DNA of 64,000 nt. It comes from Acidovorax sp. Leaf191 (GTDB taxonomy: Bacteria; Pseudomonadota; Gammaproteobacteria; Burkholderiales; Burkholderiaceae_C). The position numbers were made by a program, and so were the translations under genes. This document shows positions 650 to 33,697 of the stretch, one piece after another (within the stretch, counting starts at the first letter, position 1; every line of letters starts with the position of its first letter). Location: assembly GCF_001424425.1 (NCBI RefSeq), contig NZ_LMPT01000005.1:124001-188000 (forward strand), written 5' to 3'. The notes under the pieces were generated by a model, which had not been told where the DNA came from, did not search any database, and was given only the letters and a program-made list of their open reading frames with translations.

Positions 650-1003
650 GTGGAAAAGGCACAGCATCACGCCCAGCGCCGTGGTCGTCCAGCCCACGCG
701 GTTCGCGGTCTGCGCTGTTGTGCGGTCGATGGGGATCAGCGCGCAGCGGCGCCACATCCACACATTGCCGATGCAGGCCACCAGCACGGCGGCCACCGCC
801 AACACCACCGAGCCGAGTACGAAGGCCAGACCCAAGCCGCCAAGCAGCGTCACCCAGGTGAACATGGCGATCGCGCCAGAGGTGCTGGCCAGCACGTGCG
901 ACAGGCCGCCGCAATAGCTGCACTGCGCGGGGTTCTCGCGCGCGGACCAGCGGACCGCCGGGTCGCGGACGCCCGGCTTCTGGCAGTGGGGACAGGCATG
1001 CAT
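647..1003 (-). CDS. Small zinc-ribbon membrane protein
   Basis: A 118-residue protein of unknown function. It opens with a two-knuckle zinc ribbon (Cys4, Cys7, Cys28, Cys31 in CPHC and CSYC). Two adjacent hydrophobic segments follow at about 42-63 and 65-85, and there is a third hydrophobic stretch near the C-terminus (104-117). The start at 1003 is favoured over an upstream in-frame ATG at 1057 because it has a GGAG Shine-Dalgarno nine bases upstream and starts directly before the first cysteine knuckle. It is convergent with arsC. The domain order resembles other small zinc-ribbon membrane proteins of proteobacteria, but I cannot assign a role. Confidence 0.75.
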   Translation of the reverse strand: MHACPHCQKPGVRDPAVRWSARENPAQCSYCGGLSHVLASTSGAIAMFTWVTLLGGLGLAFVLGSVVLAVAAVLVACIGNVWMWRRCALIPIDRTTAQTANRVGWTTTALGVMLCLFH

Positions 1004-1073
1004 GGTGCGCAGCTCCGAAAGGGTGACCTGCACCACTATAGCCACTGATGCGGCCACCCGCCAATGGGTGGGG

Positions 1074-1721
1074 CTAGGGCAGCGTGAACGCCGCCCGCGC
1101 CTGCAGCGCCCGGTCGCGCGAATGGCAGCCTTCGATGTGGTCGTTCACCAGCCCCATCGCCTGCATGAAGGCGTACACGGTGGTGGGGCCCACAAAGGTC
1201 CAGCCGCGCCTCTTGAGGTCCTTGGACATGGCCACCGAGGCGGGCGATGTGGACAGCGCGCGCGCTGCCTCGCGCGTGAGGCGTGCGGGCCGGTCGGCGG
1301 CGGCGGGCTCGTAGCGCCAGGCGTAGTGGGCGAGCGAGCCGAACTCGCGGCGCAGCTCCAGCACGCGGCGCGCATTGTTGATGGTGGAGACGATCTTGCC
1401 GCGGTGGCGCACGATGGCCGCGTCCTGCACCAGGCGCTCGATGTCGGCCTCGCCATAGGCGGCGACCTTCTCGGCGTCGAAATGGTCGAACGCGGCGCGA
1501 AAGCCCTCGCGCTTGTTCAGGATGGTGAGCCAGCTCAGGCCGGACTGAAAGCCCTCCAGGCAGAGCTTTTCGAACAGGCGCCTGTCGTCATCCACCGGAA
1601 AGCCCCACTCGGTGTCGTGGTAGTGGCGGTACAGCGGCGTGGCCTGGCACCAGGTGCAGCGCGGGCAGCCGGCGTCGTCGGCGAACAGGCCTTCGGGCAG
1701 GGCGGTGGGGGCGTCGGTCAT
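1074..1721 (-). CDS. tag: DNA-3-methyladenine glycosylase I
   Basis: This base-excision repair enzyme removes 3-methyladenine from alkylated DNA. The 215-residue product shows the family features: the N-terminal WCQATPLYRHYHDTEWG block with Cys25, LEGFQSGLSWLTIL around the base-recognition glutamate (about residue 56), KRRGWTFVGPTTVYAFMQ, and the C-terminal DHIEGCH (His195, Cys199) that supplies zinc ligands in this family. It is about 25 residues longer than the E. coli enzyme because of an N-terminal extension. The same frame stays open to 2681, but the upstream part is only an antisense shadow of the peptidase gene, so the ATG at 1721 is taken. Confidence 0.95.
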   Translation of the reverse strand: MTDAPTALPEGLFADDAGCPRCTWCQATPLYRHYHDTEWGFPVDDDRRLFEKLCLEGFQSGLSWLTILNKREGFRAAFDHFDAEKVAAYGEADIERLVQDAAIVRHRGKIVSTINNARRVLELRREFGSLAHYAWRYEPAAADRPARLTREAARALSTSPASVAMSKDLKRRGWTFVGPTTVYAFMQAMGLVNDHIEGCHSRDRALQARAAFTLP

Positions 1722-1871
1722 GGTGGGGCATTCTAGGCAGGCACAGCGCAGGCCCCGGGCACACAGGCGTGCCGCACCGCGGTCCACCGGTTGCCCTAAA
1801 CTGACCGGCAGGCGCGCCCTGCCGCCCGCGCCCCCCGCCTTTTCACACCCTGTTCCGAGACGACTGCCTGC

Positions 1872-3029
1872 ATGCGCCTGCTTCCCGTACGCCCCCTGCT
1901 GTGGCTCGCCCTCGCCACCCCGTTCCTGCTGGCGGGTTGCGCCAGCACCACCGACTCGCTGGGCTACTACTGGCAGTCGGTGCGCGGCCACATGCAGCTG
2001 ATGCACGCGGCCGAGCCCATCGACCGCTGGATCGCGCGCAGCGACATCAAACCCGCGCTGCGCGAGCGGCTGCAGCTGGCGCAAAAAGCCCGCGCCTTTG
2101 CGGTGGCCGAGCTGGGCCTGCCGGACAACGCCAGCTACCGCCGCTATGCGGACCTCCAGCGCCCCGCCGCGGTGTGGAACGTGGTGGCCGCGCCGCCGTA
2201 TGCGCTGACGCTGCACACCTGGTGCTTTCCGGTCACGGGCTGCATCGGCTACCGCGGCTACTTCGCGCAGGCCGACGCCCAGGCCGAGGCCGACCAGCTC
2301 GCGGCGCAGGGGCTGGAGGTGGAGGTGTACGGCGTGCCCGCGTACTCCACGCTGGGCTACATGAACTGGGCAGGGGGCGACCCGCTGCTGTCCACCTTCA
2401 TCGGCTGGCCCGAGGGCGACTTCGTGCGCCTGCTGTTCCACGAGCTGGCGCACCAGGTGGTGTACGCCGAGGGCGACACGCTGTTCAACGAATCGTTCGC
2501 CACGGCGGTGGAACGCATCGGCGTGGCGCAGTGGCTGGCCACCCATTCCACACCTGCCGCGCGCGAGGCCTACGCCACCAGCGAGGCGCGCCGCGCCGCC
2601 TTCCGTGCGCTGACCCGTGCCACGCGCGCCCGGCTGGCGGCCACTTATGAGCAAAAAGAGGCTCCACCGCTGGATGGACAAGCGCTAGCCGCTATGAAAA
2701 CAGAAGCAATGCAGGATTTCCGCAGCCGCTACGACGCCTTGCGCGCGCAGTGGCTGGGCACCGCGCCGGGCTCCACGCCCCAGGTCACCACCGCCCAGGT
2801 GGCGGGCTACGACCGCTGGGTGGCCAAGGCCAACAACGCCAGCTTTGCAGCGCAGGCCGCCTACGACGAACTGGTGCCGGGCTTCGAGGCCCTGTTCGCG
2901 CAGCAGGGCCGCGACTGGAGCCGGTTCTATGATGCCGTACGACAACTGACCCGCCAGCCACTGCAGGAGCGCCAAGACGCCCTGCGCGCATTGGCGCCCA
3001 CGACCCCCAAGGAGACACCCGGTGCCTGA
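1872..3029 (+). CDS. Putative zinc aminopeptidase, lipoprotein
   Basis: A 385-residue predicted lipoprotein: the signal peptide ends in a lipobox LLAGC with the lipidated cysteine at 23. It carries the metallopeptidase motif HELAH at 190-194, and a downstream glutamate in NESFAT (Glu208) is the probable third zinc ligand. This matches the putative aminopeptidase family Pfam PF10023, known in betaproteobacteria but not well characterised. It would act in the periplasm or at the outer membrane. Residues about 260-280 are encoded by a copy of a dispersed genomic repeat. The stop overlaps the start of the next gene by eight bases, indicating translational coupling. Confidence 0.85.
   Translation: MRLLPVRPLLWLALATPFLLAGCASTTDSLGYYWQSVRGHMQLMHAAEPIDRWIARSDIKPALRERLQLAQKARAFAVAELGLPDNASYRRYADLQRPAAVWNVVAAPPYALTLHTWCFPVTGCIGYRGYFAQADAQAEADQLAAQGLEVEVYGVPAYSTLGYMNWAGGDPLLSTFIGWPEGDFVRLLFHELAHQVVYAEGDTLFNESFATAVERIGVAQWLATHSTPAAREAYATSEARRAAFRALTRATRARLAATYEQKEAPPLDGQALAAMKTEAMQDFRSRYDALRAQWLGTAPGSTPQVTTAQVAGYDRWVAKANNASFAAQAAYDELVPGFEALFAQQGRDWSRFYDAVRQLTRQPLQERQDALRALAPTTPKETPGA
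2650..2708 (-). repeat. Dispersed ~50-bp repeat, copy 1 (intragenic)
   Basis: Read on the minus strand, this copy runs TTTTCATAGCGGCTAGCG, then CTTGTCCATCCAGCGG, then GGAGCCTC and a T-rich end. The same order (A/T-rich TGATAGCTG, AGCGCTTG, short spacer, CAAGCGCTA/GGTA, GGCCT) recurs at six other places in the window. Here it lies inside the peptidase coding sequence and is translated in frame as part of the protein. Confidence 0.85.
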
Positions 3030-3459
3030 CATCCACATCCATCGCGAACACCAACTGGGCCTGAAAGAGGCCCGCAAGATTGCTTTCTCGTGGGCCGAAA
3101 AAGCCGAGGAAAAATTCGACATGGAATGTGTCTACGAAGAGGGCGACACCGAAGACACGCTCACCTTCAGCCGCTCGGGCGTGAAGGGCACGCTGCTGGT
3201 GGACGCCACGCAGTTCGAGATGAAGGCGCAGCTGGGCTTTTTGTTCGGCGCATTCAAGGACCGCATCGAGTCCGAGATCGGCGACCAGCTCGACGCCCTG
3301 CTGAACGGCAAGCCGGCCAAGGCGGCGGGCAAGAAGGCGGCGGCGGATGCAGAAGAGCCCAAGAAGGACAAGGCCCCCGCCAAGGCAGCCCCCAAGGCAG
3401 CCCCCAAGGCCGCTGCCAAGACGCCCGCCAAAACCGCGGCCAAGCCCAAGAAGGCCTGA
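3022..3459 (+). CDS. Polyhydroxyalkanoic acid system family protein
   Basis: A 145-residue cytoplasmic protein. The first ~95 residues match the PHA-granule-region family (TIGR02610/PF09650), with HIHREHQLGLKEARK at the start and a central KGTLLVDATQFEMKAQLGFL block. The C-terminal 45 residues are almost entirely Lys, Ala and Pro in repeated KAAPKAAPK/KTPAK units, like the basic tails of histone-H1-like and phasin-related proteins, so it may bind DNA or granule surfaces. The start is GTG, overlapping the previous stop by eight bases, with AAGGAGA seven bases upstream. The function of the family is not firmly known. Confidence 0.85.
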   Translation: MPDIHIHREHQLGLKEARKIAFSWAEKAEEKFDMECVYEEGDTEDTLTFSRSGVKGTLLVDATQFEMKAQLGFLFGAFKDRIESEIGDQLDALLNGKPAKAAGKKAAADAEEPKKDKAPAKAAPKAAPKAAAKTPAKTAAKPKKA

Positions 3460-3474
3460 GGCCCACAGCCCGCC

Positions 3475-4203
3475 ATGGCCGCCCCGGCACCCACCACCCC
3501 CACAGGCACTGCTGCAGCGCCGGCCACCGAGGCCACGGCGTTCGACACGCTGTCGGCCCTGCTGCACACCCGCTACAGCTGCCGCGCCTACCAGCCAGAG
3601 CCCCTGCCGCGCGCCACCATCGAACAGATCCTGGTGACGGCGCAGCGCACCGCGTCGTGGTGCAACGCACAGCCCTGGCAGGTGCACATCGCCAGCGGCG
3701 CCACTCTCGCGCGCCTGCGCGACGCGTTCGCCGCCGTGCTGCCGACCACGCCCGCCGCACCAGACCTGCCCTGGCCGCGCGAGTACCGCGGCGTGTACCA
3801 GGAGCGCCGCCGCGAATGCGGCTGGGGGTTGTACGAGGCCCTGGGCATTGCCAAGGGCGACCGCGAAGCCTCGGCCCGCCAGGCGGCGCAGAACTTCACG
3901 ATGTTCGGCGCGCCGCACGTGGCCATCGTCACCAGCGACGAGGCGCTGGGCACCTACGGCGCGGTGGACTGCGGCGCGTACGTGGCCCACTTCATGCTGG
4001 CCGCGCACAGCCTGGGCGTGGGCTCCATTGCGCAGGCCGCGCTCGCGTCGTACCCCGCCGTGCTGCGCGATGTGCTGGGCATTGGCGATGACCGCACCAT
4101 CGTCTGCGGCATCTCGTTCGGCATGGCGGACCTGGCGCACCCGGCCAACCACTTTCGCGCCACGCGGGCCGATGCGGCCGACAGCGTGGTGTGGCGCGAC
4201 TGA
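3475..4203 (+). CDS. Nitroreductase family flavoprotein
   Basis: A 242-residue FMN-dependent NAD(P)H oxidoreductase of the nitroreductase superfamily. Visible family signatures are the N-terminal RYSCRAYQPEPLP substrate/FMN segment, the TASWCNAQPWQVHI block that binds FMN phosphate and flanks the active site, and the C-terminal GVGSIAQAALASYP plus VCGISFG segments. The first 20 residues are a low-complexity Ala/Pro/Thr stretch. It starts 15 bases after the PHA-system gene, so it may share the transcript that begins with the peptidase gene. Natural substrate unknown (quinones, enones or nitro compounds are typical). Confidence 0.88.
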   Translation: MAAPAPTTPTGTAAAPATEATAFDTLSALLHTRYSCRAYQPEPLPRATIEQILVTAQRTASWCNAQPWQVHIASGATLARLRDAFAAVLPTTPAAPDLPWPREYRGVYQERRRECGWGLYEALGIAKGDREASARQAAQNFTMFGAPHVAIVTSDEALGTYGAVDCGAYVAHFMLAAHSLGVGSIAQAALASYPAVLRDVLGIGDDRTIVCGISFGMADLAHPANHFRATRADAADSVVWRD

Positions 4204-4215
4204 CGGGGCCTTCGG

Positions 4216-5313
4216 TCACGCCGCTGCGCGCAGCAAGGGGCTGCTGCGCGCCTGCAGCACGCCGAACAGATTCTTCGGGTCGGCCAGCGCGGGGATCAGC
4301 TCGATGCGCTCGCCCACACCCAGCACCTGCGCCGCATCGCGCAGAAAGCGCAGGGCCGAGAAGTCCTCCAGCGCAAAGCCCACGGAATCGAAGACGGTGA
4401 CCGCGGCATCGCCGCTGCGGCCTGCGCGCCGGCCGGCCAGCACCTCCCACAGCTCGGTCACCGCGAAATCGGCGGGCAGCTGCTGTATGTCGCCTTCGAT
4501 GCGGGTCTGCGGCGCGTATTCCACAAACACCTGCGCCGCACGCAGCACATCGGCATGCAGCTCGGTCTTGCCAGGGCAGTCGCCGCCCACCGCGTTGATG
4601 TGCATGCCGGGCGCCAGCATGTCGGGCGTGAGGATGGTGGCGTTGGTCTTGTCGGCCGTCACCGTGGTCACGATGTCGGCCCCGCGCACTGCGTCGGCCG
4701 TGCTGGCGCAGGCAACGGTAGCGATGCCCGTGCCCTGCAGGTTGGCCTGCAGCTTGGCGGTGGCGGCCGGGTCGGTGTCGAACAGCCGCAGCGTGGTGAT
4801 GCCCAGCAGGTGGTGAAACGCCAGCGCCTGGAACTCGCTTTGCGCGCCGTTGCCGATGAGCGCCATGGTGCGGCTGCCGGGCCGCGCCAGTGCCCGCGCG
4901 GCCACGGCCGACATGGCGGCGGTGCGCAGTGCGGTGGTGAGCGTGAGCTCACTCAGCAGCACCGGCGCGCCTGTGGCCACATCGGCCAGCACGCCGAACG
5001 CCATCACCGTCGACAGGCCATGGCGCGTGTTGCGCGGGTGGCCGTTGACGTACTTGAAGGCGTAGGTTGCATCGTCGGCAATCGGCATGAGCTCGATCAC
5101 GCCGTCCTGCGAATGGCTGGCCACGCGCGCCGACTTGTCGAACGACTCCCAGCGCAGGAAGTCGGCCTCGATGTTGTCGGCGATGCCGTGCAGGCAGGCT
5201 TCGATGCCTTTGCGCCGCACGAGGGCAATGACGTCCGGCGCACTGAGGTACAGGGTGGAGAAGGTGGTGGGGGTGGCTTGCGATGCGGTGGGTGTCAGGT
5301 TCTGCGTGACCAT
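4216..5313 (-). CDS. ocd: Ornithine cyclodeaminase
   Basis: This enzyme converts L-ornithine to L-proline and ammonia with bound NAD+, feeding arginine/ornithine catabolism. The 365-residue product follows the characterised Pseudomonas putida enzyme closely as I recall it: DKSARVASHSQDGVIELMP, YAFKYVNGHP, the Rossmann motif ALIGNGAQSEFQ, and NAVGGDCPGKTELHADVL, whose aspartate is the catalytic acid. The start ATG at 5313 is preceded by GGAG ten bases upstream; that Shine-Dalgarno lies within a 9-bp inverted repeat (5317-5342). It is convergent with the nitroreductase gene and followed upstream by an IclR regulator on the same strand, whose own target appears to be the HMG-CoA lyase side. Confidence 0.93.
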   Translation of the reverse strand: MVTQNLTPTASQATPTTFSTLYLSAPDVIALVRRKGIEACLHGIADNIEADFLRWESFDKSARVASHSQDGVIELMPIADDATYAFKYVNGHPRNTRHGLSTVMAFGVLADVATGAPVLLSELTLTTALRTAAMSAVAARALARPGSRTMALIGNGAQSEFQALAFHHLLGITTLRLFDTDPAATAKLQANLQGTGIATVACASTADAVRGADIVTTVTADKTNATILTPDMLAPGMHINAVGGDCPGKTELHADVLRAAQVFVEYAPQTRIEGDIQQLPADFAVTELWEVLAGRRAGRSGDAAVTVFDSVGFALEDFSALRFLRDAAQVLGVGERIELIPALADPKNLFGVLQARSSPLLRAAA

Positions 5314-5316
5314 GGT

Positions 5317-5342
5317 CTTGTCTCCAAAGGGATGGAGACAAG
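5317..5342 (-). promoter_or_regulatory. ocd: Inverted repeat over the ocd ribosome binding site
   Basis: CTTGTCTCC (5317-5325) and GGAGACAAG (5334-5342) form a perfect 9-bp inverted repeat with an 8-base loop just before the ocd start at 5313. In the mRNA one arm contains the GGAG Shine-Dalgarno, so the hairpin could mask translation initiation; as DNA it could equally be a repressor operator. Confidence 0.6.
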
Positions 5343-5461
5343 TTTCCGCCGGGCAGATGGCAATGGGAATCGCCAGAACTGCCGCATATTGCGCACCGCC
5401 CTGGCGAACTGGCAGCCGAAACTGGCCTTCTGACCAGTCCGCGCAACGCTCAGTCTGCGCC

Positions 5462-6202
5462 TCAGACCTGCCCGCTCAACCGGCGCGCCGCCTCCAGCAC
5501 GGCCTTGACGTACCGCTCTTCATAGCGGTGCGCCGGCATGGTCAGCGTGACAGCGGCGGCCAGGCTGCCGTCGGCATGGAACACGGGCGCCGAGATGCCC
5601 GCCACCTCGTGCAGCCGGTCGCCCGCGCCGGCCATGTAGCCGTCCGCGCGGATGCGGGCGTAGAGCGCACGGTCCTTCTGGCCCAGCGTGCGGCTGAGCG
5701 CCGGGTCGAACGCCACCAGCACCCGCCCGCCAGTGCCGCGCCCGAGCGGCAGCACATCGCCCGCGCGGATGTGGTCGCGCACGGGGTGCGGCGAATCCAC
5801 ACGGAACTGGCACAGCCGCACCGCGTCAGCGCCCTGCCCCTGGCGCACGTGGTAGGCCGCGCTCTCGCCCGTGGCGGCCACCAGGTCGCGCAGCACGGGC
5901 AGCACCACCCGGTCGAGCGAGAACGATGCCGCGTACAGCGCATGCAGCCGCGCCACTTCAGCGCCCAGTGCGTAACGCCCGTCCGCCAGGCGCTGCACCC
6001 AGCGCGCATGCTCCAGCGACGCCAGCAGGCGCAGCGCGGTGCTCTTGTGCAGTTGTGTGCGGGCGGCCAGTTCGGCCAGTGTGAGAGCGCCTTCCCCCGC
6101 GCGAAAGGCGGCCACCAGCGTGAGGGCGCGGTCCACGGCCGCCACACCGCCGGGCGCTGCGTGGGCGTCGGCCAGGGATTCGTGCGCGGATTTGCGGGGC
6201 AT
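5462..6202 (-). CDS. IclR family transcriptional regulator
   Basis: A 246-residue regulator. An N-terminal winged helix-turn-helix (about 38-90, LAELAARTQLHKSTALRLLASL) is followed by the IclR effector domain, with the family pattern LPLGRGTGGRVLVAF and ISAPVFHADGSLAAAVTLTMP. The start at 6202 (MPRKSAHES) is preferred to an in-frame ATG at 6271, which would add a non-conserved 23 residues and reach into the likely operator. It is divergent from the HMG-CoA lyase/CoA-transferase operon, so it probably controls that operon and itself; the ligand would be the acid handled there. Confidence 0.9.
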   Translation of the reverse strand: MPRKSAHESLADAHAAPGGVAAVDRALTLVAAFRAGEGALTLAELAARTQLHKSTALRLLASLEHARWVQRLADGRYALGAEVARLHALYAASFSLDRVVLPVLRDLVAATGESAAYHVRQGQGADAVRLCQFRVDSPHPVRDHIRAGDVLPLGRGTGGRVLVAFDPALSRTLGQKDRALYARIRADGYMAGAGDRLHEVAGISAPVFHADGSLAAAVTLTMPAHRYEERYVKAVLEAARRLSGQV

Positions 6203-6281
6203 GACAGGGACCGTTGGCGAACGAAGGGCTTGGCTGCGGGGGTTGACGTGATGGCGCAAAAAGCCAATCATTCCATAAGAA

Positions 6282-6305
6282 AGAATACCGTTCTATCTAT
6301 TAGAA
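6282..6305. promoter_or_regulatory. Candidate IclR operator
   Basis: In the 161-bp divergent region an AT-rich island carries overlapping inverted repeats: AGAA-N5-TTCT (6282-6294) and the perfect TTCTA-N5-TAGAA (6291-6305). The surrounding DNA is GC-rich. Position between the regulator and its presumed target operon suggests the regulator binding site and promoter. Confidence 0.55.
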
Positions 6306-6363
6306 CAACGCACCGCGGCAGCGTCAAGCCTTTGCAGCCGCCCTGCACTGCACCAAGGACCCC

Positions 6364-7296
6364 ATGGCAACCCCCGATATCCTCATCAGCGAAGTAGGCC
6401 CGCGCGATGGCCTGCAGTCCGTGAAGGCCACCATGCCCACGGCGCACAAGCTGCGCTGGATCGACGCGCTCGTCGCCGCAGGCCTGCGCGAGATCGAAGT
6501 CGGCTCGTTCGTGCCCGCACGCCTGCTGCCCCAGATGGCCGACGTGGCCGAGGTGGTGCGCCACGCGCTCACCCACCCCGGCATCACCGTGATGGCCCTG
6601 GTGCCCAACCTGCGCGGCGCCGAGTCCGCGCTGGCCAGCGGCGTGCACAAGATCACGCTGCCCGTGTCGGCCAGCGCGGCGCATTCACAGGCCAATGTGC
6701 GCAAGACCCCCGACGAGATGGTGCAGGAGCTGCGCGCCATCACCCGCCTGCGCGCCGAGACCGGGCCCCGGGTGCTGGTGGAGGTGGGCATCTCCACCGC
6801 CTTTGGCTGCACGCTGCAGGGCGAGGTGCCCGAGGACGACGTGATCCGCCTGGCCGCCGCCTGCGTGGCGGCGGGCGTGGACGAGGTGGGCCTGTCGGAC
6901 ACCACCGGCATGGCCAACCCCGCCCAGGTGCGCCGCCTGTTCACCCGGCTGCGCAGCGAGATCGGCCCGCACGCGGGCGCGGCCCACATGCACAACACCC
7001 GCGGCCTGGGCCTGGCCAACTGCCTGGCCGCGTACGACGTGGGCGTGCGCACCTTCGACGCATCGCTGGGCGGCCTGGGCGGCTGCCCCTATGCACCGGG
7101 TGCGTCGGGCAATGTGGTCACCGAAGACCTGGTGTTCATGTTCGAAGCCATGGGCCTGACCACCGGCGTGGACCTGGCCCGGCTGTTCGCCGCGCGCATC
7201 CCCCTGCAGGCCGGGCTGCCCGACGAACCGGTGTACGGCATGACGCCCGAGGCGGGGCTGCCCAAGGGCTGGACCCAGGAGACCACACATGCTTGA
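6364..7296 (+). CDS. Hydroxymethylglutaryl-CoA lyase family protein
   Basis: A 310-residue TIM-barrel lyase of the HMG-CoA lyase/DRE-TIM family, which cleaves (S)-HMG-CoA to acetyl-CoA and acetoacetate. Visible motifs are VGPRDGLQ (Arg14, Asp15) at the N-terminus, the metal-binding HMHN segment, and GGLGGCPYAPGASGNV with the conserved active-site cysteine. AAGGA precedes the ATG by six bases. It overlaps the CoA-transferase gene by eight bases, so the two are translationally coupled. The pairing suggests that a free acid is first thioesterified and then cleaved; related lyases acting on citramalyl-CoA-type substrates remain possible. Confidence 0.9.
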   Translation: MATPDILISEVGPRDGLQSVKATMPTAHKLRWIDALVAAGLREIEVGSFVPARLLPQMADVAEVVRHALTHPGITVMALVPNLRGAESALASGVHKITLPVSASAAHSQANVRKTPDEMVQELRAITRLRAETGPRVLVEVGISTAFGCTLQGEVPEDDVIRLAAACVAAGVDEVGLSDTTGMANPAQVRRLFTRLRSEIGPHAGAAHMHNTRGLGLANCLAAYDVGVRTFDASLGGLGGCPYAPGASGNVVTEDLVFMFEAMGLTTGVDLARLFAARIPLQAGLPDEPVYGMTPEAGLPKGWTQETTHA

Positions 7297-8518
7297 GAAG
7301 GACGAGGGGGCCCCGGGCCAGGGCCGCACCAACCTGCCCTACGCCGGCATCCGCGTGGTGGAGTTCACCCACATGGTCATGGGCCCCACCTGCGGCCTGG
7401 TGCTGGCCGACCTGGGGGCCGAGGTCATCAAGGTCGAGCCCATCGGCCACGGCCGCGAGGGCGATGCCACGCGCAAGCTGCGCGGGTCGGGGGCGGGCTT
7501 CTTCCCGCTGTTCAACCGCAACAAGAAAAGCCTGGCGCTGGACCTGGAAACCCCCGAGGGCAAGGAGGCCGTCCTGCGCCTGATCGCCACGGCCGACATC
7601 GTGAGCGAGAACTTCAAGCCCGGCACCATGCACAAGCTGGGCCTGGACTACGCCAGCCTGAAGGCCCTGAACCCGCGCCTCATCTACGTGAGCCACAAGG
7701 GCTTTCTGCCCGGCCCGTACGACCACCGCACTGCGCTCGACGAGGTGGTGCAGATGATGGGCGGCCTGGCCTACATGACCGGCCGGCCCGGCGACCCGCT
7801 GCGCGCGGGCACCAGCGTGAACGACATCATGGGCGGCATGTTCGGCGCCATCGGCGCGATGGCCGCGCTGGCCCAGCGCGAGAAGACGGGGCGCGGGCAA
7901 GAGGTGCAGAGCGCACTGTTCGAGAACAACGTGTTCCTCGTCGCGCAGCACATCATGCAGTTCGCCGTCACGGGCCAGCCCGCGGCGCCCATGCCTGCGC
8001 GCATCTCGGCCTGGGCGATCTACGACGTGTTCCAGGTGAAGGATGGCGAGCAGATCTTCCTGGCCGTGGTGAGCGACGGCGCCTGGGCGGTGTTCTGCGA
8101 CGCCTTCGGCTTTGCGGACCTGAAGGCCGACCCGCGCCTGGCCAGCAACAACGACCGCGTGCGCGAACGCGCGTGGATGATGCCGCTGCTGCGCGAGCGG
8201 CTTGCGCCCTTCAGCGCCGCGCACCTGGCCGACGTGTTCGAGCGCCACGCCCTGCCCTTTGCGCCCATCACGCGGCCCGAGGACCTGCTGACCGACCCGC
8301 ACCTGAACGCCACCGGCGCCCTCGCCCCCATGACCCTGCCCGACGGCCGCGCCACCCAGACGGTGCTGCTGCCCCTGGCCATGGACGGCCAGCGCCCCGG
8401 CGTGCGGCTGTCGCCACCCCGTGTGGGTGAGCACAATGCAGAGCTCCTGGCCGAGCTGGGTTACGATGCTATGAAAATTGAAGCGCTTGGCGCTTATCCA
8501 GCCAGCGGTAGGGCCTGA
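7289..8518 (+). CDS. CaiB/BaiF family (class III) CoA-transferase
   Basis: A 409-residue class III CoA-transferase that moves CoA between carboxylic acids through an aspartyl-CoA intermediate. The N-terminal block GIRVVEFTHMVMGPTCG, the VIKVEPIGHGREGDATR region and the catalytic aspartate in SVNDIMGG (Asp179) are present. The ATG overlaps the lyase stop by eight bases. The last ~16 residues (from AMKIEALGAY) are encoded by a copy of the dispersed repeat, so the native C-terminus has been replaced or extended. With the HMG-CoA lyase partner, a succinyl-CoA:3-hydroxy-3-methylglutarate transferase like human SUGCT is an attractive but unproven assignment. Confidence 0.88.
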   Translation: MLEKDEGAPGQGRTNLPYAGIRVVEFTHMVMGPTCGLVLADLGAEVIKVEPIGHGREGDATRKLRGSGAGFFPLFNRNKKSLALDLETPEGKEAVLRLIATADIVSENFKPGTMHKLGLDYASLKALNPRLIYVSHKGFLPGPYDHRTALDEVVQMMGGLAYMTGRPGDPLRAGTSVNDIMGGMFGAIGAMAALAQREKTGRGQEVQSALFENNVFLVAQHIMQFAVTGQPAAPMPARISAWAIYDVFQVKDGEQIFLAVVSDGAWAVFCDAFGFADLKADPRLASNNDRVRERAWMMPLLRERLAPFSAAHLADVFERHALPFAPITRPEDLLTDPHLNATGALAPMTLPDGRATQTVLLPLAMDGQRPGVRLSPPRVGEHNAELLAELGYDAMKIEALGAYPASGRA

Positions 8519-28360: not shown

Positions 28361-28526
28361 GGTGAAATCCCTCTTCCTGTCAACACAACGAGGTTGACAC
28401 CTCGGCGCTGCCGGCAAGAACCTGCGCACAGGTCCCCGGCAGTCTGCGGTGAAGCGGCGGGCTTTTTGTTGGATATTGGTTCGATATGCACGCCGCTTCC
28501 TACGAAGTTTAACGATCGCCCCACCC

Positions 28527-30647
28527 ATGTCCACGCCTTCTGCCGCCATTTCCCTCCCTTCTGGCCCGATCCAGGTGCGCGGTGCCTGCCCGCACGACTG
28601 TCCGGATACCTGCGCCCTGATCACCACCGTGGACGACAACGGCGTGGCCACCCGCGTGCAGGGCAACCCCGACCACCCGCACACCGACGGCGTGCTCTGC
28701 GCCAAGGTGAGCAAGTACACCGAACGCAGCTACCACCCCGAGCGCGTGCTCACACCGCTCAAGCGCACGGGCCCCAAAGGCCCGGGCGGCAGCGGCCAGT
28801 TCGCACCCGTCAGCTGGGACGAGGCCCTGGACGACATCGCGCAGCGCCTGCAGTCCATCGCCGCCCGCGCGCCCGAGGCCATCCTGCCCTACAGCTACGC
28901 CGGCACCATGGGCATGGTGCAGGGCGAGAGCATGGACCGGCGCTTCTTCCACCAGCTGGGGGCATCGCTGCTGGACCGCACCATCTGCGCATCGGCGGGC
29001 GCTGAGGCGCTGACGCAGACCCTGGGCGGCAAGGTGGGCATGAAGGTGGAGTTCTTCGCCGAATCACAGCTCATCCTGATCTGGGGCAGCAACTCCATCG
29101 GCAGCAACCTGCATTTTTGGCGCTACGCGCAGCAGGCCAAGAGGAATGGCGCCCGGCTGGTGTGCATCGACCCGCGCAAGAGCGAGACGGCCGACAAGTG
29201 CCACGAGCACATCGCCCTGCGCCCGGGCACCGATGCCGCGCTGGCCCTGGCGCTGATGCACGAGCTGATCGCCCACGACTGGCTGGACCACGACTACATC
29301 GCGCGCCACACGCTGGGCTGGGACCCGCTGCGCGAGCGCGCCCTGCAGTGGCCGCCCGAGCGCGCGGCCGAAGTCTGCGGCATTCCGGTCGAGCAGATCC
29401 GCCAGCTGGCCCGCGACTACGGCACCACCCAGCCCGCCGCCATCCGCCTGAACTACGGCATGCAGCGCGTGCGCGGCGGCGGCAACGCCGTGCGCGCCGT
29501 GGCCTGCCTGCCCGCCCTCACCGGCGCCTGGCGCCACCGCGCTGGCGGCTTGCTGCTGTCGAGCTCGGGCCAGTTCCCGGCGCAGCGCGCGGTGCTGCAG
29601 CGGCCCGACCTGATGCCCCAGGCGGCCGCAGGGCGCGTGCCGCGCACCATCAACATGACGACCATCGGCGACGACCTGCTGCGCGAGGCATCGCCCGCCT
29701 TCGGCCCGAAGGTCGAGGCCGTGGTGGTCTACAACAGCAACCCCGTGGCCGTGGCCCCGGACTCGGGCAAGGTGGTGCGCGGGTTTGCGCGCGAAGACCT
29801 TTTCACCGTGGTGCTGGAGCACTTCCAGACCGACACCGCCGACTACGCGGACTACATCCTGCCCGCCACCACGCAGCTCGAACACTGGGACGTGCACCTG
29901 TCCTACGGCCACACCGACGTGGTGCTCAACCGCCCCGCGATTGCGCCGCTGGGCGAAGCCCGCAGCAACGCCCAGATCTTCCGCGACCTGGCCGCGCGCA
30001 TGGGCTTTGCCGACCCCTGCTTTGCCGACACCGACGAGGCGCTGTGCCGCCAGGCCTTCGGCGATGCGGTGGACTACGCGCTGCTCGAATCCCAGGGCTT
30101 TGCCACGGTGGCCATTCCCGATGCGCTGTTTGCCGAAGGCAACTTCCCGTCACCGTCAGGCAAGTGCGAGTTCTACAGCGCCCGCCTGGCCGCGCAGGGC
30201 CTGGACGGCCTGCCCGACCACCTGCCCAACTACGAGCTGCAGGGCACCGACGCACGCTACCCCCTGGCCATGATCTCGCCGCCCGCGCGCAACTTCTTGA
30301 ATTCCACCTTCGTGAACGTGACGAGCCTGCGCAACATCGAAGGCCGCCCGATCCTGGAGATCCACCCCGACGACGCCGAAGCCCGCGGCATCGCCAACGA
30401 CGCCGTGGTGCGCGTGTTCAACGACCGCGGCAGCTACCAGTGCCACGCCACCGTCTCGCGCCGCGCCCGCCCCGGCGTGGTCAACGGCCTGGGCATCTGG
30501 TGGCGCAAGCTGGGGCTCGATGGGACGAACGTGAACGAGGTGACGAGCCAGGCGCTGACGGACCTGGGGCGGGCGCCGACGTTTTATGACTGCCTGGTGG
30601 AGGTGGAGGCTTGCGCTGCAGCAGCGGCAGCCGAATCAGTTGCGTGA
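28527..30647 (+). CDS. Molybdopterin oxidoreductase family protein with 4Fe-4S site
   Basis: A 706-residue member of the DMSO reductase superfamily. An N-terminal 4Fe-4S motif is complete: Cys21, Cys25, Cys29 (CPHDCPDTC) and Cys58 (DGVLCAKVSK). The MGD-binding regions follow (LIWGSNSIGSNLHFWR, CIDPRKSETADKC; C-terminal MISPPARNFLNSTFVNV). No Tat signal, so it is cytoplasmic, and no electron-transfer or membrane subunit genes adjoin. The ATG at 28527 is used; an upstream in-frame ATG at 28449 would add 26 poorly supported residues. The subgroup is common in soil proteobacteria but without assigned substrate. Confidence 0.9.
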   Translation: MSTPSAAISLPSGPIQVRGACPHDCPDTCALITTVDDNGVATRVQGNPDHPHTDGVLCAKVSKYTERSYHPERVLTPLKRTGPKGPGGSGQFAPVSWDEALDDIAQRLQSIAARAPEAILPYSYAGTMGMVQGESMDRRFFHQLGASLLDRTICASAGAEALTQTLGGKVGMKVEFFAESQLILIWGSNSIGSNLHFWRYAQQAKRNGARLVCIDPRKSETADKCHEHIALRPGTDAALALALMHELIAHDWLDHDYIARHTLGWDPLRERALQWPPERAAEVCGIPVEQIRQLARDYGTTQPAAIRLNYGMQRVRGGGNAVRAVACLPALTGAWRHRAGGLLLSSSGQFPAQRAVLQRPDLMPQAAAGRVPRTINMTTIGDDLLREASPAFGPKVEAVVVYNSNPVAVAPDSGKVVRGFAREDLFTVVLEHFQTDTADYADYILPATTQLEHWDVHLSYGHTDVVLNRPAIAPLGEARSNAQIFRDLAARMGFADPCFADTDEALCRQAFGDAVDYALLESQGFATVAIPDALFAEGNFPSPSGKCEFYSARLAAQGLDGLPDHLPNYELQGTDARYPLAMISPPARNFLNSTFVNVTSLRNIEGRPILEIHPDDAEARGIANDAVVRVFNDRGSYQCHATVSRRARPGVVNGLGIWWRKLGLDGTNVNEVTSQALTDLGRAPTFYDCLVEVEACAAAAAAESVA

Positions 30648-30664
30648 TCGACTGAACTCCCCAG

Positions 30665-30877
30665 CTACTGCTCCGATCCGTCGCGTGAAGGCGGCAAACG
30701 CACAATTTGCCCTCCACGGGCCACGATCAAATCCGTGCCCGTTTGCTGGGCCACTTGGCGGGCCCGCTGCGCCGCCCGGCGAATAGCCACCTGAGCGCCT
30801 TTGAAGTCCGCCTGCACATCACGCCCGTTTGTGGTATAGGCCGGGACGGGCTCATTCACAGCATGTGGCTTCGTCAT
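30665..30877 (-). CDS. Small partner (possible antitoxin) of the zeta-toxin-like ATPase
   Basis: A 70-residue protein translated from an ATG that overlaps the zeta-like gene's stop (ATGA, 30877-30874). The sequence has a charged helical centre (AIRRAAQRARQVAQQTGTD) and a short C-terminal strand LIVARGGQIVRL. I recall short proteins with a similar A-R-x-x-A-x-x-T-G-T-x-x-V-x-R pattern next to zeta-toxin-like ATPases in other proteobacteria, where they are presumed antitoxins. The order here (toxin first) is unusual for classical type II pairs. The frame could start at 30892, five residues earlier. Confidence 0.7.
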   Translation of the reverse strand: MTKPHAVNEPVPAYTTNGRDVQADFKGAQVAIRRAAQRARQVAQQTGTDLIVARGGQIVRLPPSRDGSEQ

Positions 30878-31404
30878 GGCTTTCCACTCCAATCCATCAA
30901 TTGGGGCTCATCCCCCGAGTTGTCATACACCGACCACTGGTCCACCAGCGGCTGGTACACGGTGCGCAGCAAAAGAAGTCCTGCCGCAAACCGACGGTGA
31001 ACCGTCGCTTCAGGAATGTGATGGCCACCCTGGCGCACCCGTTCTGCCACACGTTGTACCGCCATGCCCGCGTGGGGCAGACTCAAAAAAAATAATTCCA
31101 CAAAATAACCTGCCCGCCGCCACTGCGGAATCTGCCTGGCATACGCCCGACCCGACAGCGTTTCAAACGCGAAACTTTCTCGCCGGTCCACATGTTGGGC
31201 AATCGCTTGCAGCATCAGGCGCCCCGCTTGAAGAGCAGCCAGCTCTGGCGCGAAGGGCGACAAGCCCGCAGCGATCAAATCTGCATTCACAAACACTGGA
31301 CAGGCCGCCTCATTGGGCAAAAACTCCCGCGCGAATGTGGTCTTGCCCGCTCCATTCGGTCCGGCAATGATGATGATCCTGGGCACGGTCTCGGGTGCTG
31401 TCAT
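30874..31404 (-). CDS. Zeta-toxin-like P-loop ATPase
   Basis: A 176-residue P-loop protein of the zeta toxin/COG4185 group. It has a Walker A GPNGAGKTTFAREFLP at about 15-30, NADLIAAGLSPFAPE (the Asp/Asn substrate-lid element), FAFETLSGRAYARQI (the zeta-type acceptor segment) and the ELFFLSLPHAGMAVQRVAERVRQGGHHIPE strand-helix with a conserved arginine. True zeta toxins phosphorylate UDP-N-acetylglucosamine; this shorter group is less well characterised. ATG at 31404 is chosen over 31422. Coupled by ATGA to a 70-residue partner. The 195-bp upstream gap to the MFS gene shows no further gene. Confidence 0.83.
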   Translation of the reverse strand: MTAPETVPRIIIIAGPNGAGKTTFAREFLPNEAACPVFVNADLIAAGLSPFAPELAALQAGRLMLQAIAQHVDRRESFAFETLSGRAYARQIPQWRRAGYFVELFFLSLPHAGMAVQRVAERVRQGGHHIPEATVHRRFAAGLLLLRTVYQPLVDQWSVYDNSGDEPQLMDWSGKP

Positions 31405-31599
31405 GGCACATTGCACCCCCACAAGCCATATCCCGCAAGCTCTGAGTGCAGAAGGGTGAGGCGGGCTTGGTATGGGTCAGTGGGGTGGGCAGGCAAAGCA
31501 GTCTCGTCACAGGTAGCACTGCATTATGAAACTCCTGGGCGAATAGCTGCGTGCGCTTGTCCACCAGGCTCTGGCAGTAAATTTTGTTTAGCGCCTGCC

Positions 31600-33291
31600 T
31601 CAGTGCGCCGGTGCGGAATGTGCAGGATCTGCATCCGCACTCTCCCCCGGCACTAACGCCAGAAAGTGATGCACCACCGGCCGCCCAGGCCCCTGGTGAA
31701 ACCGCAGCGCCTCCGCCTGCAGGTCCGCATCCGCCTTGGACACGCGGTGGTGCTGGCGCAAATGCTCGGCCCAGGACTCGACCAGGAACCACTCGATCAC
31801 GCGGCCCGGCTCGCCGGTGTGTTCGGCCACGCCCCAGGCGTAGGCGCCGTCGCGGCGGCGCTCCTGGGACAGGTGCTGCATGGCCTGCAGGAAGGCGGGC
31901 AGGTCGGGCTTGGCGATGCGGTACTCGATCTGCACCATCACCGGGCCCCGGTCGTGCGCGACGGGCTGGGCCATCAGGGGCTCGGGCCAGTGGTTGGAGG
32001 GCTGCAGGTCGGCCTCGCCGGTGGGCAGCTTCACGCGGTGAAAGATGAGCGACGCCACCACCAGCCCGGCCGCGCCCAGCAGCAGCGTGACCGGCAAGCC
32101 GGCCTGCCCCGCGATGAGGCCCCAGCCCAGGCTGCCGGCGGCCATCGCGCCGTTGAAGACCATGAGGTAGATGGCCAGGCCGCGGCCGCGCACCCAGTTG
32201 GGCAGCACGGCCTGGGCCACGCCGTTGAGGGTGGTCAGCGCGATGATCCAGCCCAGGCCCAGCACCAGCATCAGCGCCACGGCGGCCCACTGGGGCGGGG
32301 CCACGGTCAGCACGCCCATGACGGCGGCGGTGAGCAGGGATGCCAGCAACACCAGGCCGTCGGTGTCGAGCCGCTGGCGCAAGCGGGGCAGCAGCACGGC
32401 GCCCAGGATGGCGCCTGCGCCCACGGCGCCCAGCATCACGCCGTAAAAGCCTGCCGAGCCGCCCAGCATGCGGCGCGCCACCAGCGGCAGCAGCGCCCAG
32501 ACGGAGCTGGCAAACAGGAAGAACACGGCGGCGCGCAGCAGCACCACATGCAGCTCGCGGCTGGCGCGGGCGTAGCGCACGCCGGCGCGGAAGGCGCCGA
32601 AGAACTGCTCGTTCAGGCCTGACGCCTCGGCCTTCGGGCGCTTCCACCACAGCAGCGCGGCGATCACGAACACATAGCTCAGCACGTCCAGGCCGTAGGC
32701 CATGGCCGCGCCGAAGCTCGCCAGCAGCAGGCCACCCGCCGCAGGGCCGATGGCGCGTGCGATGTTGATGCCCAGCGAGTTGAGCGCCACAGCGCTCTTG
32801 AGCTCGCTGCGCGGCACCAGCTCGGGCACGATGGACTGCCAGGTGGGACCCATGAGCGCGGCACCGATGCCGCCCACGAAGGTCAGCGCCACCAGCCACT
32901 CCACCGTCAGCATGTGGGTGTTGGCCAGGATGAGCAGCGTGCCGCTGACGGCCGCCAGCAACACCTGCACGCCGATGAGGAAGCGGCGGCGGTCCAGGAT
33001 GTCCGACAGCACGCCCGCAGGGATGGCGAGCAGAAAGACGGGCAGCGTGGCGGCGGTCTGGATCAGCGCGACCGCGGTGGGGCTGGACGAGAGCTCGGTC
33101 ACCATCCAGGCGCTGGCGACGTCGCGCATGAAGCTGCCGATGTTGCCCAGCACGGTGGCGGCCCAGAGCACCGCGAAGACGGGGATGGCCAGGGGAGCGA
33201 AGCTGCCGGATGCCGCGGGCGCTGTGGATGCCGTGGGCGCTGCAGCAGCGGGGGTGTGGTGGTGGTGATGATCGTGTTGGTTATTCGGCAT
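31600..33291 (-). CDS. MFS exporter with C-terminal cytosolic extension (MFS_3/TES family)
   Basis: A 563-residue major facilitator protein of the EntS-like MFS_3 family (PF05977). The N-terminus has a histidine cluster (HDHHHHHT, residues 5-12) and an Ala/Pro-rich linker before the first of about twelve membrane segments (35 onward; GVLSDILDRRRFLIG is the MFS loop 2-3 motif). After the last segment, about 130 residues form a soluble tail (VQIEYRIAKPDLPAFLQAM.., FLVESWAEHLRQHHRV) resembling antibiotic-biosynthesis-monooxygenase ferredoxin folds and usual for this family. It overlaps the DoxX gene by 11 bases as last gene of a coupled operon. Efflux substrate unknown. Confidence 0.88.
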   Translation of the reverse strand: MPNNQHDHHHHHTPAAAAPTASTAPAASGSFAPLAIPVFAVLWAATVLGNIGSFMRDVASAWMVTELSSSPTAVALIQTAATLPVFLLAIPAGVLSDILDRRRFLIGVQVLLAAVSGTLLILANTHMLTVEWLVALTFVGGIGAALMGPTWQSIVPELVPRSELKSAVALNSLGINIARAIGPAAGGLLLASFGAAMAYGLDVLSYVFVIAALLWWKRPKAEASGLNEQFFGAFRAGVRYARASRELHVVLLRAAVFFLFASSVWALLPLVARRMLGGSAGFYGVMLGAVGAGAILGAVLLPRLRQRLDTDGLVLLASLLTAAVMGVLTVAPPQWAAVALMLVLGLGWIIALTTLNGVAQAVLPNWVRGRGLAIYLMVFNGAMAAGSLGWGLIAGQAGLPVTLLLGAAGLVVASLIFHRVKLPTGEADLQPSNHWPEPLMAQPVAHDRGPVMVQIEYRIAKPDLPAFLQAMQHLSQERRRDGAYAWGVAEHTGEPGRVIEWFLVESWAEHLRQHHRVSKADADLQAEALRFHQGPGRPVVHHFLALVPGESADADPAHSAPAH

Positions 33292-33697
33292 GGCGGCCTC
33301 CGAGGTCGTGCCAGGCGACGAGCAGCATGCCGCCCACCAGGCCCCAGTGTTCAAAAAATGCGTTGGCGCTGCGCTGCCGATCGGCGGGCGGCGCGGCCCA
33401 GAAGCGGTCTGCCAGCAAGGCGGCCAGCACGGTAAAGCCCGCCAGGGCCAGCGCCCCGATCCAGCGGTACCAGCCCGACAGGATGAGCGCCGAGGCCGAA
33501 AGCTGCAGCACCAGCGTGGCAGCAGCGATGGGCGCGGCGGGCGCCAGACCGAGCGAGCGCACCTCGGCCACGGCGCCGGCAAAGTTGCGGGCCTTGCCGA
33601 TGCCGCCCTGCAGGTAGGCGGCGCACAGGCACAGCAGCGCCAGCGTCTGCACCCAGGGCGCGGTGGCGGCAGTTTGCAATGCGTGCTGCACCGTCAC
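33281..33697 (-). CDS. DoxX family membrane protein
   Basis: A 138-residue protein with four hydrophobic segments and the DoxX hallmarks: YLQGGIGKARNFAG near residue 30, LQLSASALILSGWYRWIGALALAGFTVLAALLADRFW in the middle, and AFFEHWGLVGGMLLVAWHD at the end. The start is a GTG at 33697 that overlaps the amidohydrolase stop (GTGA), and the gene ends within the MFS gene start, so all three are translationally coupled. DoxX proteins are small quinone- or thiol-associated inner-membrane proteins, often near oxidative-stress genes. Confidence 0.87.
   Translation of the reverse strand: MTVQHALQTAATAPWVQTLALLCLCAAYLQGGIGKARNFAGAVAEVRSLGLAPAAPIAAATLVLQLSASALILSGWYRWIGALALAGFTVLAALLADRFWAAPPADRQRSANAFFEHWGLVGGMLLVAWHDLGGRHAE

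What the first reader, a model, noticed from the sequence alone, without database searches (positions are those of the whole stretch)
30665..31404. Zeta-toxin-like ATPase coupled to a small downstream partner in reverse toxin-antitoxin order
The ATPase keeps the P-loop and zeta-type segments and its stop overlaps the start of a 70-residue charged protein (ATGA). Classical epsilon/zeta systems place the antitoxin first; here the putative antitoxin is second and unrelated to epsilon, suggesting a distinct pair.
Basis: partly seen in the sequence, partly recalled or inferred. Interest (0 to 1): 0.6.

Follow-up and report, generated by a model that had tools for sequence, protein, structure and literature searches.

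The report
Widespread toxin-first zeta-kinase gene pair
A bacterial kinase resembling a known self-poisoning enzyme is regularly followed by the same kind of tiny gene in many distantly related bacteria, which suggests a common but unnamed toxin-antitoxin pair; the kinase copy in this genome may be weakened.

Summary
On the minus strand a 176-residue zeta-type kinase (31404..30874) overlaps by ATGA a 70-residue gene (30877..30665). The pairing is not local: in 79 of 79 related genome loci with a readable kinase end, the small partner follows as a separate gene (77) or is fused to the kinase (2). A profile from 11 partners (the window's and ten from its family survey) finds it in that slot in 68 of 80 held-out loci and twice elsewhere. 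A Shine-Dalgarno core precedes the partner start in 63 of 76 overlapping pairs, against 255 of 3,800 control positions. In two surveys 19 of 42 partners sit beside a broken or missing kinase, while none of the 37 intact kinases read there lacks a partner: the pattern expected of toxin and antitoxin. Best reading: a type II toxin-antitoxin pair, toxin first, with an undescribed helix-plus-hairpin antitoxin family. Toxin-first order has a zeta-fold precedent (AvrRxo1:Arc1), so this is a new variant of a known kind. Toxicity, inhibition and substrate are untested. Here the kinase lacks one residue of a conserved motif and may be weakened.

The parts
30874..31404 (-). Zeta-type P-loop kinase, putative toxin, 176 aa (alternative GTG start at 31422)
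   Evidence: PF06414 37.4 bits, cut-off 22.3; model pLDDT 92.1, pTM 0.87; zeta toxin 1gvn_B Z 15.1, rmsd 2.5, 167 aligned
31336..31362 (-). Walker A / P-loop GPNGAGKTT (residues 15-23)
   Evidence: Translation; conserved in alignments
31279..31281 (-). Conserved Asp42 in NADLIA, candidate catalytic base
   Evidence: Invariant among 53 sequences; the match to zeta Asp67 is inferred from fold and position, role of Asp67 from PMC3062530
31156..31164 (-). E81-T82-L83: motif one residue shorter than E-[TS]-T-L in relatives
   Evidence: 89 of 94 kinase reads carry the longer motif; of the other five one is this copy, one reads ETTM and three are misses of the script's fixed search stretch
30874..30877 (-). 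ATGA stop/start overlap
   Evidence: the same offset in 72 of 92 separate partners
30887..30890 (-). GGAG Shine-Dalgarno-like core inside the kinase 3' end, 9 nt before the partner ATG
   Evidence: Such a core in 63 of 76 overlapping loci against 255 of 3,800 control positions
30665..30877 (-). Small partner, putative antitoxin, 70 aa
   Evidence: conserved core ALxRAAxRAR..A.QTGT..V..DG; partner profile at the downstream slot in 68 of 80 held-out loci at E<1e-3
30725..30787 (-). Conserved core of the partner (residues 31-51); the matching region of a natural fusion is modelled as a long helix followed by a hairpin
   Evidence: Alignment; secondary structure of L110 model residues 173-228
30612..31644 (.). 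Segment between flank matches that is only 154-195 bp in five genus relatives (pair plus flanks)
   Evidence: G+C of 30665-31404 is 0.603 against 0.689 for the window

Best explanation
This is a type II toxin-antitoxin pair in toxin-first order. The first gene makes a small-molecule kinase of the zeta/PezT fold that harms the cell when free, probably by phosphorylating a nucleotide-linked metabolite. The second gene makes a small protein (median 62 residues) with a conserved helix and a C-terminal beta-hairpin that binds and silences the kinase. Ribosomes that finish the kinase restart at the overlapping ATG, helped by a Shine-Dalgarno core inside the kinase's last codons, so each round of kinase synthesis also makes the inhibitor; this would offset the risk of putting the toxin first. 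Shown here by computation: fold class, constant linkage, overlap, Shine-Dalgarno enrichment, natural fusions, one-sided decay, insertion into an otherwise short gene junction. Inferred: toxicity, binding, the inhibitory step (most likely blocking the ATP site, as reported for epsilon), restart of ribosomes, and the substrate. In this genome the kinase may be attenuated.
For: Partner present in 79 of 79 genome-contig loci with a readable kinase end: 77 separate, 2 fused. Held-out test: 68 of 80 at E<1e-3, 5 weak, 7 none (one of these runs off its contig); 2 hits elsewhere among 8,657 six-frame segments. Natural fusions L095 and L110. One-sided decay: of 42 partner places in surveys of 200 and 369 genomes, 23 have an intact kinase and 19 a broken or absent one, including a transposase-like insertion, frameshifts and deletions. 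Intact kinases lacking the partner: 0 of 13 in the family survey and 0 of 25 in the class survey, there 23 at E<1e-3 and 2 weaker. Chance of 19 to 0 if decay only followed gene length is 0.0017. Shine-Dalgarno core 63 of 76 against 6.7%. Kinase and partner distances correlate over 86 pairs, Spearman 0.517, highest of 500 shuffles 0.177. Fold match to zeta, PezT and AvrRxo1.
Against: No toxicity, binding or inhibition data. The closest solved structures to the model are bacterial polynucleotide kinases (4gp7 Z 16.6), ahead of zeta (15.1), so the substrate could differ. The decay argument assumes independent events; 3 of the 19 (L144, L149, L152) show no kinase trace at all, so they may be unrelated genes with a similar core, and the partner matches in L149, L151 and L152 are partial. 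'Intact' means an open frame only: L005 is counted as intact although its P-loop reads GADK. The partners of seven held-out loci were not found by the independent profile and rest on the iterated one (six) or run off the contig (one). No promoter was found by consensus, and no DNA-binding domain was recognised in the partner.
Confidence: 0.77

Rival explanations
1. The pair is a housekeeping or metabolic kinase with an obligate small subunit or chaperone, not an addiction pair: the small protein activates or stabilises the kinase.
For: Best structural matches are polynucleotide kinases; tight coupling, Shine-Dalgarno signals and fusions fit a stable complex equally well.
Against: An activator should be lost as readily as the kinase once either breaks, yet 19 of 42 partners persist beside a broken or absent kinase and none of the intact kinases read in the surveys lacks its partner. 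Patchy distribution: kinase relatives at E<=1e-30 in 45 of 369 class genomes; the pair's segment is absent in five of five genus relatives where the junction could be read.
Confidence: 0.13
2. The kinase is an antitoxin-like or defence enzyme whose small partner is the harmful element (roles reversed).
For: Gene order would then be the classical antitoxin-first order; four of 123 flanking proteins scanned are type I restriction specificity subunits.
Against: Partner genes persist without an intact kinase in 19 of 42 places, which a toxin could not easily do. The kinase has the zeta fold with conserved catalytic positions.
Confidence: 0.04
3. In this particular genome the pair is a decaying relic: the kinase is inactive and the small gene remains only as a passenger (compatible with the best explanation for the family).
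For: One residue missing in a motif otherwise kept in 89 of 94 reads (three of the others are script misses). The residue presumed equivalent, Thr118 of zeta, contacts substrate, and its exchange in PezT gave a non-toxic variant (PMC3062530, passage). Broken kinases are common in relatives.
Against: Both frames are otherwise intact, and P-loop, Asp42, Arg118, Arg122 and the GGH motif remain. The shortened copy still models with high confidence, which does not test activity. Which of the two Thr is missing cannot be told, and the Thr118 equivalence was not aligned directly.
Confidence: 0.4

Closest known systems
epsilon/zeta and PezAT (1gvn, 3q8x, 2p5t)
   Same: Kinase fold (1gvn_B Z 15.1, 2p5t_B Z 14.5), Pfam PF06414, two-gene module.
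   Different: Order reversed; no sequence match of the partner to an epsilon family; kinase only 176 aa; sequence so distant that the family profile reaches PezT only at E 0.2.
AvrRxo1:Arc1 (Xanthomonas; zeta-fold toxin with its antitoxin gene downstream)
   Same: Zeta-like fold (Z 12.6) and toxin-first order, with Arc1 shown to be an antitoxin in E. coli (passages of PMC4938570).
   Different: AvrRxo1 is larger and type III-secreted; no Arc1 match to the partner profile in PDB sequences at E<=1.
Rv0367c-Rv0366c type (ParD-like antitoxin before a zeta-like toxin)
   Same: Zeta-like toxin paired with a non-epsilon antitoxin (passages of PMC6362051, PMC6504116).
   Different: Antitoxin upstream, predicted ribbon-helix-helix; the second zeta gene of this genome is of this kind (PF11903 46.1 bits).
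EzeT of E. coli
   Same: Toxin and antitoxin in one polypeptide, like L095 and L110 here (passage of PMC4826407).
   Different: Antitoxin domain N-terminal in EzeT, C-terminal here.
ng_zeta1 subfamily
   Same: Proteobacterial zeta kinases can differ in wiring and product (passages of PMC5923241).
   Different: Its partner is called ng_epsilon1, an epsilon-type antitoxin.
Synechocystis pSYSG sll8004-ssl8003 (SGL_RS01145-SGL_RS01140)
   Same: A close member: kinase 63% identical, 59-aa gene overlapping it, annotated 'zeta toxin family protein' and 'hypothetical protein'.
   Different: On a plasmid; listed with three other genes as 'related to TA modules' that did not meet that paper's criteria (PMC4963859, passage). 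The match of old to new locus tags is inferred from gene order.

Membership tests
Zeta toxin family (PF06414) | Profile score above the curated cut-off | tested here: met
   37.4 bits against 22.3; 42 of 42 members scanned match at E<=1e-3
Zeta toxin family (PF06414) | P-loop kinase fold of zeta/PezT | tested here: met
   1gvn_B Z 15.1 over 167 residues; polynucleotide kinases score higher, 16.3-16.6
Zeta toxin family (PF06414) | UDP-GlcNAc binding residues (E100, T118, R120, T121, T128 in zeta, per PMC4938570) | tested here: inconclusive
   A Thr at the presumed T118 place is kept in relatives, but the window copy is one residue short; no direct alignment to zeta was obtained
Zeta toxin family (PF06414) | Toxicity by kinase activity | not testable with these tools
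   Needs expression and enzyme assay
epsilon/zeta TA system | Antitoxin gene precedes toxin gene | tested here: not met
   Partner follows in the window and in 77 of 79 loci, the other 2 being fused with the partner at the C-terminal end
epsilon/zeta TA system | Epsilon-family antitoxin | tested here: not met
   No epsilon family among Pfam matches of P0002 (E<=1) or of 37 partners (E<=0.1); by sequence only
Type II toxin-antitoxin module in general | Two small co-directional, coupled genes that stay together | tested here: met
   Overlap at the same offset in 72 of 92; distance correlation 0.517 over 86 pairs
Type II toxin-antitoxin module in general | Antitoxin can exist without toxin but not the reverse | tested here: met
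   19 of 42 partners beside a broken or absent kinase; intact kinases without partner 0 of 13 and 0 of 25
Type II toxin-antitoxin module in general | Toxin poisons the cell and the protein antitoxin relieves it by binding | not testable with these tools
   Not tested
AvrRxo1:Arc1 | Partner homologous to Arc1 | tested here: inconclusive
   No Arc1 match with the 37-sequence partner profile in PDB sequences at E<=1; partner alone was not modelled

The most novel reading that the evidence does not exclude
A very widespread toxin-antitoxin family, spanning about a dozen bacterial phyla by record titles, in which a helix-plus-hairpin protein rather than epsilon shuts off a zeta-fold kinase, made toxin-first by translational coupling and sometimes fused into one self-silenced protein. 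The kinase acts on a substrate other than UDP-GlcNAc, and a related partner helix in a second kinase clade (profile match E 1.9e-5, probability 77.6, 27 columns) would make this a general antitoxin type for short zeta kinases outside Firmicutes.
Probability: 0.35. Interest if true: 0.68.

Novelty: new variant of a known kind. Interest (0 to 1): 0.52.

Why it matters
Zeta-type kinases are annotated in many genomes. If the partner neutralises them, one small family would supply the antitoxin for a large set of zeta genes whose neighbour is now only a 'hypothetical protein', give another well-sampled case of toxin-first order with a testable coupling mechanism, and offer natural fusions for structural work. 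The one-sided decay test used here could be applied to other unannotated pairs.

Tried and rejected
Family libraries and PDB sequence searches on the partner gave only chance-level matches. An alignment mixing fusions, kinases and partners misplaced the partners and was not used. The consensus promoter scan found nothing. Relatives are rare in viral collections: 4 loci from 92 pattern matches in IMG/VR and 4 distant records of 50,697 phages, so a phage-cargo reading was dropped. On plasmids, 478 of 72,556 records hold a kinase relative at E<=1e-5, only 4 of them at 60% identity or more, all Synechocystis; the window partner itself finds no plasmid record at E<=0.01. Flanking proteins (123 of 146 listed, itself at most one per side; 23 left out by me, mostly long ones) show no common neighbour beyond 4 type I specificity subunits and a few methylases, so a larger operon was rejected.

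Counts that go against a simple story: in the family survey many weaker hits (for example L025, L027, L029) are other zeta subfamilies without this partner. In the class survey 17 of 47 kinase places were not fetched and not examined; of the 30 fetched, L178 and L179 run off their contigs and L166, L183 and L184 have a broken kinase, which leaves 25. With the first partner profile 14 of the 25 had a strong match, one E 1e-5, two about 0.03 and eight none; with the iterated profile 23 are at E<1e-3, L171 at 0.0014 and L180 at 0.023, and L171 and L180 show no ATG start at the slot. The iterated profile also gave one other hit at E<=1 in five of the 25 loci. The decay test with only the first 6 broken cases was weak (P 0.13).

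Full report
WHAT IS THERE. On the minus strand, 31404..30874 encodes a 176-residue protein and 30877..30665 a 70-residue protein, overlapping by ATGA. The first passes the Pfam cut-off for Zeta_toxin and, narrowly, AAA_33. The second matches no described family. A molybdopterin-oxidoreductase-like gene (28449-30647, plus strand) and an MFS-like gene (31600-33582, minus strand) flank the pair; these two names are my reading of the translations, not a family scan.

IS THE PAIRING REAL? In 79 the kinase stop lies inside the locus. In 77 a separate small gene follows; in 2 (L095, L110) the partner core is fused to the kinase C-terminus; both are metagenome bins, so an assembly fault is not excluded. 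To limit circularity I built a profile from 11 partners (the window's and ten of the family survey) and searched all six frames of the 80 loci: 68 hits at the downstream slot at E<1e-3, 5 weaker, 7 without (L108 runs off its contig), and only 2 hits elsewhere in 8,657 segments, both extra partner-like copies. The remaining loci were assigned with an iterated profile, which is less independent. Over 92 separate partners (77 of the 80 loci, 14 family loci with the window, and the Synechocystis plasmid) the start lies at the same overlapping offset in 72; the median length is 62 residues, range 47-101. A Shine-Dalgarno core stands 5-15 nt before the partner start in 63 of 76 overlapping cases, against 255 of 3,800 in-phase control positions inside the kinase genes. 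Kinase and partner distances correlate over 86 pairs (Spearman 0.517; highest of 500 shuffles 0.177); shared descent contributes to this number. Record titles of the 80 loci name Pseudomonadota, Planctomycetota, Nitrospirota, Verrucomicrobiota with Lentisphaerae and Kiritimatiellia, Acidobacteria, Omnitrophota, Dehalococcoidia, Elusimicrobia, Latescibacterota, WOR-3 and a flavobacterium, and a cyanobacterial plasmid carries a close pair. Most are metagenome bins, so single labels may be wrong.

ONE-SIDED DECAY. If the kinase is toxic, its loss should be tolerated but loss of the partner should not. Partner searches in 200 family genomes (15 places) and 369 class genomes (28 places) give 42 distinct places (the window is in both). 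By script, 23 have an intact kinase directly upstream and 19 do not. The 19 include an internal deletion fused in frame to the partner (L033), a transposase-like insertion (L139/L183), frameshifts or stops (L046, L143, L148), large deletions (L045, L132, L140, L142, L151), places with only a short kinase tail seen by eye (L036, L039, L044, L154, L155) or no trace (L144, L149, L152), and L150 with only a short N-terminal piece. In the other direction, 13 close kinases with open frames in the family survey all have a partner (L005 among them has an altered P-loop), and so do 25 of the 30 fetched class loci that have an open kinase and enough downstream DNA: 23 at E<1e-3, L171 at 0.0014 and L180 at 0.023 with the iterated profile. 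The window is in both sets, so 37 are distinct. If decay simply followed gene length the 19-to-0 split would have probability 0.0017; with the first 6 cases alone it was 0.13. Events may not all be independent.

FOLD. The window kinase models well (pLDDT 92.1, pTM 0.87). The nearest solved folds are bacterial polynucleotide kinase 4gp7 (Z 16.6, rmsd 2.8, 156 aligned), zeta 1gvn_B (15.1, 2.5, 167), 3q8x_D bound to its substrate (15.0), PezT 2p5t_B (14.5) and AvrRxo1 (12.6). So it is a zeta/polynucleotide-kinase-type P-loop kinase; the substrate cannot be read from the fold. The natural fusion L110 (pLDDT 89.9, pTM 0.74) shows the partner region as one long helix (173-211) and a hairpin (214-219, 222-228); no interface confidence or coordinates were available, so docking is unknown. 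In epsilon/zeta the antitoxin blocks the ATP site (PMC3062530, passages) and Arc1 is predicted to do so on AvrRxo1 (PMC4938570, passages). By analogy I propose the same; this is inference.

THIS GENOME. The pair looks like a recent arrival. The oxidoreductase end is found in 37 of 40 genus genomes. Of 19 relatives whose loci I read, the MFS gene is within reach in 5, and there the two flank matches are 154-195 bp apart instead of 1,034; the other 14 were not resolved. The pair's G+C is 0.603 against 0.689 for the window. The two other genus members in the family survey had only distant kinase hits; the 40 genus genomes were not searched for the kinase. The kinase is one residue short in the motif that reads E-[TS]-T-L in relatives: 89 of 94 kinase reads have the longer form; of the other five, one is this copy, one reads ETTM, and three were missed by the script's fixed search stretch. 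In the class loci 28 of 30 have the four-residue form or a near variant, the exceptions being this copy again and the interrupted L183. In PezT, exchange of the Thr corresponding to zeta Thr118 gave a non-toxic protein. The equivalence is likely but was not aligned directly (PezT 93-144 pairs with profile 56-106 only at E 0.2). So this copy may be weakened; intact copies exist elsewhere.

CONTRAST IN THE SAME GENOME. A second zeta-type gene (C7, L002) is preceded by a ParD-like antitoxin gene (PF11903 46.1 bits, cut-off 23), the conventional order described for Rv0367c-Rv0366c. The two zeta genes of one genome thus have different kinds of partner and opposite orders. A further kinase clade (L016-L022 and L024, 38-46% identical to the window kinase) is also followed by a small gene whose helix resembles the partner's (E 1.9e-5, probability 77.6, 27 columns).

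LITERATURE. Searches showed me no description of this pair as a toxin-antitoxin system in the held library, which lacks most subscription papers; I looked at listings and at passages of seven papers only. The Synechocystis copy is mentioned once, among genes 'related to TA modules' that did not meet the authors' criteria (PMC4963859, passages). Toxin-first order with a zeta fold is known from AvrRxo1:Arc1, and zeta with non-epsilon antitoxin from mycobacteria.

VERDICT. It is a new variant of a known kind: a zeta-fold toxin with an undescribed, widespread antitoxin family placed second.

Noticed in passing
L002 (G000:C7:72414-75818): Second zeta-type gene of the same genome, preceded by a ParD-like antitoxin gene (PF11903), in conventional order.
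   Followed up: partly
L016-L022 and L024: A separate zeta clade also followed by a small helical gene with weak profile similarity to this partner.
   Followed up: partly
L074 1900-2240 and L101 2300-3500: Extra partner-like copies without their own kinase, upstream in L074 and about 1.7 kb downstream in L101.
   Followed up: partly
L127 (Synechocystis pSYSG 842-7345): The close plasmid pair sits between a nucleotidyltransferase/restriction-subunit stretch and a DUF4433 plus macro-domain gene pair that looks like DarTG (the name is recalled, not tested).
   Followed up: no
L183 (G225 contig 1): Kinase interrupted by about 820 bp with a transposase-like frame on the opposite strand, with the partner intact.
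   Followed up: partly
L005, kinase on the reversed strand: This family copy has an open kinase frame but its P-loop reads GADK instead of GAGK, perhaps another silenced kinase with an intact partner.
   Followed up: no
L033 and L152: The frame just upstream ends in the same peptide in both loci, suggesting a shared insertion site; the kinase is partly deleted in one and absent in the other.
   Followed up: no
L005 2260-2475 (reversed strand): Third downstream frame resembling a DUF2283-type protein next to the pair (name recalled).
   Followed up: no
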